Of a DNA stretch of 64,000 nt, positions 37,855-42,914 are shown piece after piece. Numbering within the stretch: the stretch's first letter is position 1; each line of letters begins with the position of its first letter. The DNA lies in the NCBI GenBank assembly GCA_020347665.1, contig CP070737.1:685286-749285 (forward strand), in the 5' to 3' direction. The translations under genes were made by a program, and so were the position numbers. The notes beneath the pieces are model-generated. The model did not search any database, was not told the DNA's origin, and worked only from the letters and a program-made list of their open reading frames with translations. Source of the stretch: Nitrospiraceae bacterium. GTDB lineage: Bacteria > Nitrospirota > Thermodesulfovibrionia > Thermodesulfovibrionales > UBA6898.

Positions 37855-38163
37855 TTATTTTCCTTCTTTCTCGATTCCTGCTATAGGCTTTTTCGTAAAG
37901 AGATAGTCTTTTAATTCCTTTGAAAAGGATTCATCCTGTCTCCTGACCCACTCAAGAAGCATGGCAGCATGTTCTTTTTCTTCATCCCGGTTATGGAGCA
38001 GTATTTCTCTGAGTTCTTTGTCATTACAAACATCTGCCCGCTGGTTATACCAGTTTACCGCTTCCAGCTCTTCGATGAGCGAGATAAGAGCCCGATGCAT
38101 ATTTTTTGTTTCCCCGCTCAATTCATTGATGGGCTCATGTAATCCTTCATGTGCCATGACCAA
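37855..38163 (-). CDS. encapsulated-ferritin (EncFtn) type protein without capsid tag
   Basis: 102 residues from the ATG at 38163, which has GGAGG 6 bases upstream. It follows the EncFtn helix pattern closely: SGETKNMHRALISLIEELEA, VNWYNQR, HNRDEEKEHAAMLLEW, DYLFTKKPI. With this start the family numbering is preserved: Glu32, Glu62 and His65 (ferroxidase site) and Trp38 are all present. In encapsulin cargo the protein continues into a C-terminal targeting peptide ending in GSLK-like residues. Here it ends GIEKEGK. No encapsulin gene is in the window. It should oxidise iron as a decamer; how it is housed is open. Confidence 0.9.
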   Translation of the reverse strand: MVMAHEGLHEPINELSGETKNMHRALISLIEELEAVNWYNQRADVCNDKELREILLHNRDEEKEHAAMLLEWVRRQDESFSKELKDYLFTKKPIAGIEKEGK

Positions 38164-38289
38164 CCTCCTTCAAAAAGAATGTACCGTTAATTACTTTCTT
38201 GTGCCAATCGTATTCGTTTCGTGTATGCATCACGATATACAGCCACTGTATTACAGATCCTGATCACCCAAAGACGATCTCCTTTGACG

Positions 38290-38316
38290 AAAAAAGCAGG
38301 GGCTGTAAGCCCCTGC
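38290..38316 (-). terminator. rho-independent terminator of the heat-shock operon
   Basis: On the minus strand GCAGGGGCT and AGCCCCTGC form a perfect 9-base-pair stem around a 3-base loop (38296-38316). Six T follow (38290-38295). It lies 13 bases after the hsp20 stop codon and ends the dnaJ-hspR-clpB-hsp20 unit. Confidence 0.92.
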
Positions 38317-38329
38317 TGCCACAACGCGG

Positions 38330-38767
38330 TTAGTTCCCGGTCACTGTTATGGTTTTCGGTTTTGCTTTTTCTTTCTTCGGAAGAATGATCTCGAGAACAC
38401 CGTTTTCATAACTCGCCGTTGCCTTACCAGTCTCAACTGCATGAGTAATCGGGATTGTCCGGATGAAGGTTCCGGACTGACGCTCGAGTGAATAGTAGTC
38501 TTCTTCTCTCAGTTCTTCTTCCTTCCTGATTTCGCCCTTGATTGTTAAAGCGTCCTTGGTAATCGAGATATCAATATTCTCTTTCGCAACTCCGGGAATA
38601 TCTGCCTTAACCACAAGGGAGCCGTTCTTTTCAAATATGTCGACCTTTGGAACCGGGACGCCTGTCTTCATGCTCCTCTGATTAAACGAACCCCCTGTTC
38701 CCAAATCGATTAAATTCTCAAAAAAGCCGTCCATATCTGACAATGGTCTCCATGTTACCAGCTTCAT
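38330..38767 (-). CDS. Hsp20/alpha-crystallin small heat-shock protein
   Basis: 145 residues, usual for the family. The alpha-crystallin domain has VPKVDIFEKNGSLVVKADIPGV near residue 37, and the closing A-x-x-x-n-GvL motif is ASYENGVLEI near 123, followed by IILPK (an I-x-I-like tail). It holds unfolding proteins in a refoldable state. Its ribosome site AAAGGAGG is strong. It lies 62 bases after clpB and just before a terminator, so it is the last gene of the operon. Confidence 0.95.
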   Translation of the reverse strand: MKLVTWRPLSDMDGFFENLIDLGTGGSFNQRSMKTGVPVPKVDIFEKNGSLVVKADIPGVAKENIDISITKDALTIKGEIRKEEELREEDYYSLERQSGTFIRTIPITHAVETGKATASYENGVLEIILPKKEKAKPKTITVTGN

Positions 38768-38828
38768 GTATATACCTCCTTTATCTTTAATTTGTTTTAT
38801 TCTTAATCCATATTCCGTCGTGGACAGA

Positions 38829-41468
38829 TTAAGAACTCATTTCAGCTGTTGCAGCCTTGCTGAATACCATCTGACCGTCGGCGTAATCAACGTCCACAGA
38901 AACTCCTTCACCAAAGGTTCCATCAAGGATTTTCCGGGCCAGCTCATTCAAAACCATTTTCTGCAGTACTCGTTTCAGGGGGCGTGCGCCATAGATCGGG
39001 TCAAAGCCTATTTCTGCAAAGTGCTCCTTCGCCCTGTCGGTCAGTTTTACATCAATATTTTTTCCCTTGATATACGTCTTCATTCGTTCAAGCTGTATGT
39101 CCACAATCTGCTTGAGCAGCTCTTTTGTCAAAGGGTTGAAGATAATGATTTCATCAACCCGGTTCAGAAACTCAGGCTTAAAGGAAGCCTTAAGGTCCTC
39201 CATGACTTTTCCTTTAAAACTGTTCGCCGAATCATCTACCCAGTACGCAGACGGATGCTTTTCTCGCTCCGTCAGCATTTCCTGAATATGCTCGCTTCCG
39301 ATATTGGACGTCATGATAACAATGGTGTTTCTGAAGTCCACCGTTTTTCCATGGCTGTCGGTCAGCCTGCCGTCATCAAGTAACTGAAGGAGCAGATTGA
39401 AGACTTCAGGGTGCGCCTTCTCTATTTCATCAAACAGGATAGCTGCATATGGTCTCCGCCGAACCGCCTCGGTCAGCTGCCCGCCTTCCTCGTATCCGAC
39501 GTAGCCGGGAGGTGCGCCGATAAGTCGTGAGACCGTGTGGCGTTCCTGATATTCAGACATATCGATTCGTACCATGGCATTTTCATCGTCGAACATGAAT
39601 TCAGCAAGTGCCCGTGCAAGCTCTGTTTTCCCCACACCAGTAGGGCCGAGGAAGATAAAAGAACCGATTGGTCTGTTCGGATCCTGTATCCCTGCGCGCG
39701 CGCGCCTGACCGCATTGGTTACTGCTTCTATGGCCACATCCTGTCCAACGACCCTCATTTTGAGCCGTTCTTCCATATGAAGCAGTTTCTCCACCTCTGT
39801 TTCTAGCATCTTTGAAACAGGAATTCCCGTCCATTTTGATATAACTTCTGCAATGTCCTCTTCATCAACTTCTTCCTTGAGCATTTTTCTTCTGCTCTGG
39901 GCCTCAATCAACTGAGCATTTTCTGTTTCCAGTGATCTTTGCAATTCAAGCAGTTTTCCGTATTTCAATTCAGCAGCTTTGGTAAGATCTCCTTCGCGCT
40001 CTGCTTTTTCAGATGCAACTTTCGTCTGTTCGATCTGTTCCTTATGGGTACGCATCCGCTTAATGATCTCCTTTTCCGTTATCCATTGTGCACGAAGTTC
40101 ATCTCTTCGTACCCGCAGTTCAGACATTTCCCGGTTGATTTTTTCGAGTTTTCCGTCTGATGATTGTGTGCTCTCCTTGGTAACCGCCTTCTTTTCTATT
40201 TCGAGCTGTCTCAATCTTCTCTCGATCTCATCCAGTTCTACCGGCATACTGTCTATTTCCATTCTGAGCTTAGAAGCAGATTCATCGATCAGGTCTATCG
40301 CTTTATCAGGCAGGAAACGGTCTGTTATATACCGGTTTGAGAGAGCTGCGGCTGATATGAGAGCTTCATCCTTGATTTTTACCCCGTGGTGTACTTCATA
40401 TTTTTCTTTGAGCCCCCGTAAAATAGAAATCGTATCTTCAACACCGGGCTCCTTCACAAAGACCGGCTGAAACCTTCTTTCAAGAGCCGGATCTTTCTCA
40501 ATATGCTTTCTGTACTCACCCAGTGTCGTCGCGCCGACACACCTGAGATCACCCCGTGCAAGAGCAGGCTTGAGCATGTTGGATGCGTCAATTGCTCCCT
40601 CAGCCGCACCGGCTCCAACGAGCGTATGCATCTCGTCAATAAAGAGAATGACTCTGCCTTCTGCCTCTTCTATCTCTTTCAATACCGCTTTCAGTCGGTC
40701 TTCAAATTCTCCTCTGAACTTTGATCCGGCTATCAAGGCACCCATATCAAGAGCAACAACTTTTTTATTCTTCAGGGTTTCAGGAACATCGCCTGCGACA
40801 ATCCGCTGCGCCAGTCCTTCTGCCATGGCTGTTTTTCCCACACCCGGTTCGCCAATAAGCACCGGATTGTTTTTGGTCCTTCGGGACAGCACCTGGATAA
40901 TCCGCCGAATTTCTTCGTCCCTTCCGATAACGGGATCAAGCTTTCCTTTTGCAGCCAGTTCAGTGAGATCCCTGCTGAATTTTTTCAGGGCCTGATATTT
41001 GTCTTCAGGATTCGGGTCGGTAACGCGTTGCGCGCCTCTGATTTCCTTCATCGCAGTAAGTATTTTTGCGGCGTCAGCACCGTATTTATGAAGCAGATCT
41101 GAAGCCGCACCACCAGCCGAGCGTATCGCAAGCAGCAGGTGTTCCACACTGACATATTCATCTTTCAAGTGCTCTGCTTCTTTTGTCGCACGCTCAAAAA
41201 TGTCTTTCAGTCTCGGAGTAATATAAATCTGCCCAACGGGTGTCGCGCTGATTACTTTGGGAAGTTTGTCAAGCACCTCCCCGACATCCTTCTGCAAGGC
41301 GCCGGTATCAATGCCTATCCTCCGTAGCAGCTGTGTTGCAACCCCTTCCTGATCGTCAAGAATGACCCAGAAGAGATGCTCTGCATCGATCTGCTGATGC
41401 CCTTTCTGTTCTGCAAGCCGTTGAGCATTCTGTATAGCTTCCTGACTCTTTATGGTAAATTTATCCAT
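38829..41468 (-). CDS. clpB: ClpB disaggregase
   Basis: 879 residues. An N-terminal Clp_N repeat pair, an AAA1 domain ([13 protein letters not shown], then [15 protein letters not shown]), a coiled-coil middle domain (about 400-530, with long Glu/Lys/Arg stretches), an AAA2 domain ([24 protein letters not shown]) and the C-terminal domain ([12 protein letters not shown]). The coiled coil separates it from ClpA and ClpC. It pulls proteins out of aggregates with DnaK/DnaJ. It lies 10 bases after hspR with AAGGAGG before the ATG. Confidence 0.97.
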
Positions 41469-41478
41469 AGCATCCTCC

Positions 41479-41826
41479 TTATTCTTCTTCTAATGCCTTT
41501 CTGAATTTATCTTCAAGATCTCGCCTGATTTCATCATCAAGGGAATCCATCATCTCTTCAATTTCCTTCTGCATGATTTCCATCCGGTGCTTCATTCTGA
41601 GAATAATATCCACGCCGGCTTTATTAACACCAAGTTCTCTGGTAAGCTGAAGAATAAAGCTCAGTCTTTCTACATCGCTGTCCGAATATAACCGCTGTTT
41701 ATTATTTCTTTGAGGAGAAATTAATCCCTCTTTTTCATAGAGCCGCAATGTCTGAGGATGCACATTGAGCATCTCGCAGACTACACTGATTAAATATAAT
41801 GGGTAATCTTTATCTCTTTTATTCAT
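41479..41826 (-). CDS. hspR: HspR-like MerR-family heat-shock repressor
   Basis: 115 residues. The MerR helix-turn-helix is [26 protein letters not shown] with the wing [11 protein letters not shown], and a short coiled-coil C-terminus. HspR usually binds HAIR elements and needs DnaK as co-repressor. It sits between dnaJ and clpB, as in actinobacteria and several deltaproteobacteria. TAATG shared with the dnaJ stop gives translational coupling. A HAIR-like site lies upstream of dnaJ, so the operon is autoregulated (inference). Confidence 0.9.
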
Positions 41827-42914
41827 TATTTTCTCACCATACCTTTTCTCGGTGATTCCCTGTAGAGGGCTTCTATCTCTCGAATCGATTGCACGCCATG
41901 ATCCGGCACGTTATGTGGTACGGCAATTTTTATGCTTACGTATTGATCACCTTTTCGTCCCGTTCGTGCAGAGGGAAATCCCTTGCCTGAAAGCTTGAAT
42001 TTCTGCCCCCCGTGTGTTCCGGGCGGAAGGGTCATCGCGGTCATTCCGTCGATCGTCGGAACTTTTATTTTGGCCCCGAGTACGGCTTCGCCAAAGGTTA
42101 CCGGAATATCAATATATACATTGTCTCCTTTTCGGGTAAAGAGCGGATCTGATAGCACGGTAATTTCAATATACAGGTCACCGGGAGGCCCACTGCCTTC
42201 TCCGGCACCTCCTTTTCCGGTAACACGAACCTTGGAGCCAGTATCTGCCCCGGCCGGGATTTTAACCGTTATGGTTTCTGCCTTAAGCATTTGCCCCCTG
42301 CCTCCGCACGGTTTACAGTTTTTTGTTACCTTCCTTCCGGATCCGCCACAGGCACTACAGTGCTGTGACATTTTGAAAAATCCCTTGGAGGTTGCTATCT
42401 TGCCCGTACCTCTGCAGCGATCGCATTGTGAATAGGTCTCAGCACCTGACCCTTTACAGTGTTTGCATGAAATCTCTCTATTAAATGATATGGGTTTCTT
42501 TACACCTTTATAAGCCTCTTCGAGTGATAGACTCAGCGACATGAGAAGGTCGGGGCCACGGGCATCGGTCCGTTCAAAACCAAAGCCCGTACCAAATACA
42601 TCTGAGAATATATCACCGAATCCCCCAAAGTCGAATCGGTCGCCGGATGTATATGTCCTGAAATCAAATCCCGGACCGCCCTGACCGAACCCTGCATGTC
42701 CGAACTGATCATACCGAGTCCGCTTCTTGTCATCGCTCAAGACTTCATAGGCTTCATTTACTTCCTTGAATTTGCGCTCTGCGGTCTTGTCGCCCGGATT
42801 GAGATCAGGATGATATTTTCGGGCAAGCTTTCTGAATGCCTTTTTTATATCATCCTGCGAGGCCTTTTTGCTGATTCCCAATGTTTCATAGTAATCCTTC
42901 ACAGATTGTGCCAT
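41826..42914 (-). CDS. dnaJ: DnaJ co-chaperone
   Basis: 362 residues. J domain with the HPD motif at 35-37 (YHPDLNPGD), a Gly/Phe-rich region near 75-115, and four CxxCxGxG zinc repeats ([32 protein letters not shown]). The two C-terminal beta domains follow. This is a full type I DnaJ that stimulates DnaK ATPase. No dnaK or grpE is in the window. It is the first gene of the operon, with GGGGG before the ATG. Confidence 0.96.

What the first reader, a model, noticed from the sequence alone, without database searches (positions are those of the whole stretch)
37855..38163. EncFtn-type ferritin without capsid tag and without encapsulin gene
The protein keeps the EncFtn residues Glu32, Glu62, His65 and Trp38 at family positions but ends at residue 102, where encapsulin cargo continue to a GSLK-like targeting peptide. 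No encapsulin gene is within 38 kb on one side or 26 kb on the other. Such proteins cannot store mineral alone, so a free form would need another sink or shell, or serve as a ferroxidase only.
Basis: partly seen in the sequence, partly recalled or inferred. Interest (0 to 1): 0.55.

Follow-up and report, generated by a model that had tools for sequence, protein, structure and literature searches.

The report
Shell-free short EncFtn-type ferritin-like protein
This gene encodes a small iron-oxidising ferritin-like protein whose best-known cousins work inside protein nanocapsules, but here there is no capsule address tag and no capsule gene was found in the genome; it belongs to a widespread, already named class whose shell-free role has not been shown by experiment.

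Summary
The minus-strand gene at 37855-38157 (100 aa from ATG) is an EncFtn-like protein (PF22277, 139 bits; top solved match NE0167/3k6c, 2e-40) with intact ferroxidase residues and no targeting peptide. The whole genome (one 2.25 Mb contig, 91% complete) has no encapsulin of the two families searched and no ferritin/Bfr/Dps above cut-off. It is no sequence error: the best 80 relatives (of 582) all lack a tag and nearly all end at the same place. The class is in print as 'Non-EncFtn' (2016) and 's-FLP' (2024); the 2024 review leaves open whether s-FLPs are encapsulated. The data here speak against it: 102 of 111 other genomes with an untagged protein have no PF04454 encapsulin, and in 7 of the 9 exceptions the shell lies beside a different, tagged cargo. 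Eight of 99 proteobacterial loci place the gene in or next to a rubrerythrin/Fe-S oxidoreductase/DUF3501 cluster, so I favour a shell-free Fe(II) oxidase in iron/peroxide defence; DUF3501 is missing from the window's own genome. New member of a known kind.

The parts
37855..38157 (-). s-FLP gene (EncFtn-like, 100 aa, ATG start, TAA stop at 37857-37855)
   Evidence: PF22277 139 bits, TIGR04535 130.1 bits, 3k6c E 2e-40, fold match
38164..38170 (-). ribosome-binding site AAGGAGG, 6 bases before the ATG
   Evidence: read directly
38068..38070 (-). codon of E30 (family Glu32, ferroxidase ligand)
   Evidence: alignment to 5da5/33bf; invariant in 16 rows
37978..37980 (-). codon of E60 (family Glu62, ferroxidase ligand)
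37969..37971 (-). codon of H63 (family His65, ferroxidase ligand)
37858..37878 (-). short tail GIEKEGK in the place where cargo proteins go on to the targeting peptide; no tag
   Evidence: low confidence in the model
38295..38317 (-). terminator-like hairpin between hsp20 and the s-FLP gene; suggests a separate transcript
   Evidence: consensus scan only, 1 found against 1.4 expected in shuffles

Best explanation
The gene encodes a shell-free EncFtn-type ferroxidase (the s-FLP class). Subunits with two long helices assemble, by homology, into a ring-shaped decamer with a di-iron ferroxidase centre at the subunit interface. The centre binds Fe(II) and oxidises it with oxygen or peroxide, which lowers the free Fe(II) that feeds damaging chemistry, and gives Fe(III) up to the cytosol instead of to an encapsulin lumen. 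Shown here: the family, the intact ligands, the absent tag, the absent shell gene, and the same pattern in about a hundred other genomes. Inferred: the decamer, the activity, the oxidant and the fate of the iron.
For: All ferroxidase ligands conserved. No tag in this protein or in the 80 best relatives. No PF04454 or PF19307 shell in the genome. Of 111 other untagged carriers 102 have no PF04454; in 7 of the other 9 the shell lies beside its own tagged cargo, EncFtn in five and DyP in two. None of the 80 loci has a shell in its stored flanks. Relatives of R. rubrum type oxidise iron without a shell but do not store it (PMC11202242, PMC5012862, passages). Links to oxidative defence: rubrerythrin/Fe-S oxidoreductase/DUF3501 cluster in 7 of 80 loci and in G574.
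Against: No activity or oligomer state has been measured for this protein, and none for the class in the papers I saw. The window's genome has no DUF3501 and the gene sits alone between hsp20 and PEPCK, so nothing local links it to iron. Free Fe(III) release would be wasteful unless another carrier takes it, and no ferritin cage was found in this genome. Many carriers are incomplete bins, so absence of a shell is weaker for them.
Confidence: 0.6

Rival explanations
1. Rubrerythrin-like peroxide reductase: the di-iron centre is re-reduced by an electron donor (in some relatives the Fe-S oxidoreductase of the rubrerythrin cluster), so iron stays bound and peroxide is the substrate.
For: The gene sits in or next to the rubrerythrin/Fe-S oxidoreductase/DUF3501 cluster in 7 of 80 loci, within 3 kb and never at 3-10 kb, and in G574. 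DUF3501 is in 8 of 23 untagged carriers against 24 of 372 others (no kinship correction) and in 8 of 8 f29/f32 carriers. Weak PF02915 similarity, 20.4 bits against a cut-off of 22.8. katG lies near the gene in L036 and L063.
Against: Most loci lack the cluster (73 of 80); the window's genome and the four f24 carriers have no DUF3501. The ligand set is that of ferroxidases of the EncFtn type.
Confidence: 0.22
2. Cargo of an unrecognised shell, or of an encapsulin that binds a cryptic signal in the short tail.
For: The 2024 review considers it possible on steric grounds (PMC11202242, section 3). In 397 genomes a shell was slightly commoner in untagged carriers (2 of 23) than in the rest (4 of 372), p 0.04 uncorrected. 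Other shell families were not searched.
Against: No shell of two families in the genome; 102 of 111 carriers have none of PF04454; the shells that do occur mostly have their own tagged cargo, and the two shells behind the p 0.04 are DyP systems.
Confidence: 0.07
3. A laterally acquired former cargo gene that is decaying.
For: The 20 same-family genomes listed have no copy; long end branch, 0.58.
Against: Open frame with intact ligands and a strong ribosome-binding site; 70-77% identity to relatives that also lack the tag.
Confidence: 0.04

Closest known systems
s-FLP / Non-EncFtn class, NE0167 of Nitrosomonas europaea (PDB 3k6c)
   Same: Length about 95-100 aa, same fold, same ferroxidase residues except W36, which is Leu in NE0167; no targeting peptide
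   Different: The window's protein runs about five residues further (GIEKEGK instead of the common AH plus one residue)
Encapsulated ferritins FLP-TP, e.g. R. rubrum Rru_A0973 (5da5) and H. ochraceum (5n5f, 7oe2)
   Same: EncFtn fold and ferroxidase ligands
   Different: They carry a C-terminal targeting peptide and have a shell; this protein has neither, and it lies outside the branch that holds the tagged proteins
Aerobic-type rubrerythrin cluster (rubrerythrin, DUF3501, RFO; Cardenas et al. 2016, PMC5114695)
   Same: Di-iron ferritin-superfamily chemistry; in 7 of 80 loci the s-FLP gene is part of or next to this cluster
   Different: The s-FLP subunit has two long helices, not a full four-helix domain; DUF3501 is absent in the window's genome

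Membership tests
EncFtn-like domain family (PF22277 / TIGR04535) | model score above curated cut-off | tested here: met
   139 bits against 27; 130.1 against 125
EncFtn-like domain family (PF22277 / TIGR04535) | ferroxidase ligands Glu32, Glu62, His65 (R. rubrum numbers) | tested here: met
   E30, E60, H63 here; alignment, invariant in 16 rows
s-FLP / Non-EncFtn class | EncFtn fold with a short C-terminus and no targeting peptide | tested here: met
   class described in PMC11202242
s-FLP / Non-EncFtn class | decamer | not testable with these tools
   only a monomer model could be made; decamer stated for 3k6c in PMC11202242
Encapsulin cargo (FLP-TP) | C-terminal targeting peptide | tested here: not met
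Encapsulin cargo (FLP-TP) | encapsulin gene in the genome | tested here: not met
   PF04454 none at E<=10, PF19307 none; genome 91% complete
Rubrerythrin | PF02915 above cut-off | tested here: not met
   20.4 bits against 22.8
Rubrerythrin cluster member | DUF3501 in the same genome | tested here: not met
   PF12007 absent in G000, though present beside the gene in 7 of 80 relatives

The most novel reading that the evidence does not exclude
s-FLPs are a large shell-free branch of the EncFtn family with a job of their own: free ferroxidases or peroxidases that work alongside rubrerythrin-type defence, so that 'encapsulated ferritin' describes only part of the family. In the window's genome such a protein is the only EncFtn-type ferroxidase and no ferritin cage was found, which would mean iron detoxification by a ferritin relative with no storage shell at all.
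Probability: 0.35. Interest if true: 0.5.

Novelty: new member of a known kind. Interest (0 to 1): 0.35.

Why it matters
The 2024 review says it is unclear whether the s-FLP tail holds a binding sequence and that s-FLPs could in theory be encapsulated. The survey here makes this testable and argues that they are not: most carriers have no encapsulin, and where a shell exists it usually lies beside another, tagged cargo. It also offers a concrete partner set (rubrerythrin, Fe-S oxidoreductase, DUF3501), named organisms to test in (Thioalkalivibrio denitrificans L048, Candidatus Thiodiazotropha endolucinida L085), and a warning that the TIGR04535 name ('encapsulin-associated') can mislead for this class.

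Tried and rejected
Sequence error or frameshift that cut a tag: rejected, since no tag motif follows in any forward frame and relatives lack it too. SrpI-type shell taking untagged cargo: PF19307 absent (no control genome holds a hit above cut-off there, so the controls do not show the sensitivity). Tail subgroup: the longer tails of L025, L028, L033, L038, L048 and L098 resemble the window's, but the tree does not join them with it; the window's only neighbour is L029 (support 92, long branch, 95 columns), so its origin is unresolved. Heat-shock control: a recalled HspR (HAIR) consensus gave no match with up to 2 mismatches in the window, and a terminator-like hairpin separates hsp20 from this gene. 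The sigma-70-like site at 38207-38178 lies so close to the ribosome-binding site that it is unconvincing. Conserved neighbours: apart from the rubrerythrin/Fe-S oxidoreductase/DUF3501 set only scattered ones were seen; my ORF lists keep antisense shadows, which filled the largest other clusters, so rarer neighbours may be missed. Literature: searches for EncFtn, encapsulin with Nitrosomonas and localization sequence, NE0167, encapsulin/ferritin-like/rubrerythrin/DUF3501 with at least 3 of 4 terms, s-FLP with encapsulin and 'encapsulin-associated ferritin-like'. In what I read of the results no paper reports the s-FLP/rubrerythrin cluster; I read passages of four papers that held my terms, a fifth held none of them, and one whole section.

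Full report
What is there. The minus-strand ORF 37855-38163 is real. A clear ribosome-binding site (AAGGAGG, 38170-38164) points to the ATG at 38157, so the protein is most likely 100 aa. It scores 139 bits against PF22277 EncFtn-like and passes TIGR04535 narrowly (130.1 against 125). Its closest solved relative is NE0167 of N. europaea, 3k6c (E 2e-40), ahead of the H. ochraceum and R. rubrum encapsulated ferritins. E29, E30, E32, W36, Y37, E60 and H63 are invariant in 16 aligned sequences, the window's and 15 of the 80 relatives. A model built on those 16 rows (mean pLDDT 78) has two long helices and a short third, and its best structural matches are 3k6c and 5da5; residues 90-100 are of low confidence.

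No tag, no shell. The protein stops at ...PIAGIEKEGK. No tag-like motif was found in any forward frame of the gene or the 250 or so bases after it. In the whole genome, one contig of 2.25 Mb estimated at 91% complete, there is no PF04454 encapsulin, no PF19307 shell, a single PF22277 gene above cut-off and no PF00210 ferritin/Bfr/Dps above cut-off (best 15 bits). It does hold rubrerythrin-like ORFs (in L002, L003 and L005; I name these from their sequence, not from a family scan).

It is a class, not an oddity. None of the 80 has a tag; 70 end in A/T-H plus 0-1 residue by script (L061, which the script read past its stop, ends the same way). In 395 genomes drawn from the window's phylum, 13 have PF22277, in 14 copies, all without a tag (one copy, L019, is cut by its contig end); 20 same-family genomes are listed without it. 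The literature knows the class as 'Non-EncFtn' (PMC5012862, passages) and 's-FLP' (PMC11202242, passages and section 3). [quoted passage not shown]

Are they encapsulated? For the genomes of the 12 other phylum carriers and the 80 loci, PF04454 is found in 3 of 50 and 4 of 42. In a separate draw of 397 Pseudomonadota genomes, PF22277 is in 25 and PF04454 in 8 at E<=0.001, 7 of them above cut-off. Of the 25, two are tagged and both lie beside a shell gene; 23 are untagged, and two of these (G524, G543, with a diverged EncFtn-like protein) have a shell elsewhere. Four of the 23 genomes are also among the 80, so there are 111 distinct untagged carriers besides the window's genome, 9 with a shell match. 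In five of the nine (G404, G419, G437, G444, G457) the shell lies with its own tagged EncFtn; in G404 both are cut by contig ends, and G444's shell match is a fragment beside an EncFtn frame with a stop inside. In G524 and G543 the shell lies with a DyP-like protein ending GSLGIGSLKK (named by me from sequence). G447's shell frame carries a stop and no cargo was seen; G320's match is a diverged shell-like protein of 42 bits. None of the 80 loci has a shell in its stored flanks, up to 10 kb a side. A result the other way: in the 397, a shell match was slightly commoner in untagged carriers (2 of 23) than in the rest (4 of 372), p 0.04 uncorrected, owing to the two DyP systems. Many carriers are incomplete bins, and only 10 of the 50 genomes are known to be at least 90% complete with at most 5% contamination (1 of those 10 has a match).

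Context. The gene mostly stands alone. In 7 of 80 loci it lies with an Fe-S oxidoreductase (PF02754) and DUF3501 (PF12007), both within 3 kb and never at 3-10 kb, and with rubrerythrin (PF02915) in 6 of the 7; the seventh, L028, ends before the place where rubrerythrin would lie. In L035 the s-FLP gene follows DUF3501; in the other six it sits between the Fe-S oxidoreductase and DUF3501. G574, from the other sample, shows s-FLP, DUF3501 and a weak PF00210 match in matching positions. That makes 8 of 99 distinct proteobacterial-sample loci (80 plus 23 less 4 shared). Cardenas et al. 2016 described the rubrerythrin/DUF3501/RFO cluster (PMC5114695, passages); the passages I saw do not mention an EncFtn gene. 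DUF3501 is in 8 of 23 untagged carriers against 24 of 372 others (p 1.6e-4, no correction for kinship), in 8 of 8 f29/f32 carriers, in 0 of 4 f24 carriers and not in the window's genome. PF00210 is in 40 of 48 untagged carriers tested, of 111; since a rubrerythrin also passes that model (40 bits), the weak match of G574 may be one, which leaves 39.

Tree. With 120 rows and 95 columns few forks are firm. The seven tagged proteins fall in a starred branch (97) that also holds untagged ones (the f24 group, L121, L123, L124 and L127-L131). The window lies outside it among proteobacterial and same-phylum s-FLPs, next to L029 with support 92 on a long branch. The root was set by me on the four most diverged proteins. 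Patchy presence suggests lateral transfer or loss; the tree does not decide.

Mechanism. Best reading: a free EncFtn-type ferroxidase for iron and peroxide defence (0.6). A rubrerythrin-like peroxide reductase is the main rival (0.22), encapsulation in something unseen 0.07, decay 0.04. Decamer, activity, oxidant and fate of the iron are inferred from relatives. No tool named the organism; the phylum looks like Nitrospirota to me from genome sizes alone, which is a guess.

Noticed in passing
L102 (G320), L109 (G437), L142 (G819): A diverged encapsulin-like gene (about 316-328 aa, PF04454 about 37-53 bits); in L102 and L142 it is followed by an FAD-oxidoreductase-like gene. No EncFtn-type cargo was seen in these stretches.
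   Followed up: no
L015-L019 and L127-L131: Untagged EncFtn-like proteins that fall inside the branch holding the tagged ones: perhaps separate losses of the tag.
   Followed up: partly
L036, L063 (katG); L050, L085 (Fur-like); L036, L039 (ZIP-like transporter): Scattered oxidative-stress or metal genes within 3 kb of the s-FLP gene, two loci each; names are mine from sequence.
   Followed up: partly
G489 contig C1:4309667-4312786: A PF00210 gene (110 bits, one stop inside) about 2.4 kb from an untagged EncFtn gene.
   Followed up: no
38330-42914: Heat-shock cluster on the same strand upstream of the s-FLP gene: dnaJ-like, MerR/HspR-like regulator, clpB-like and hsp20.
   Followed up: partly
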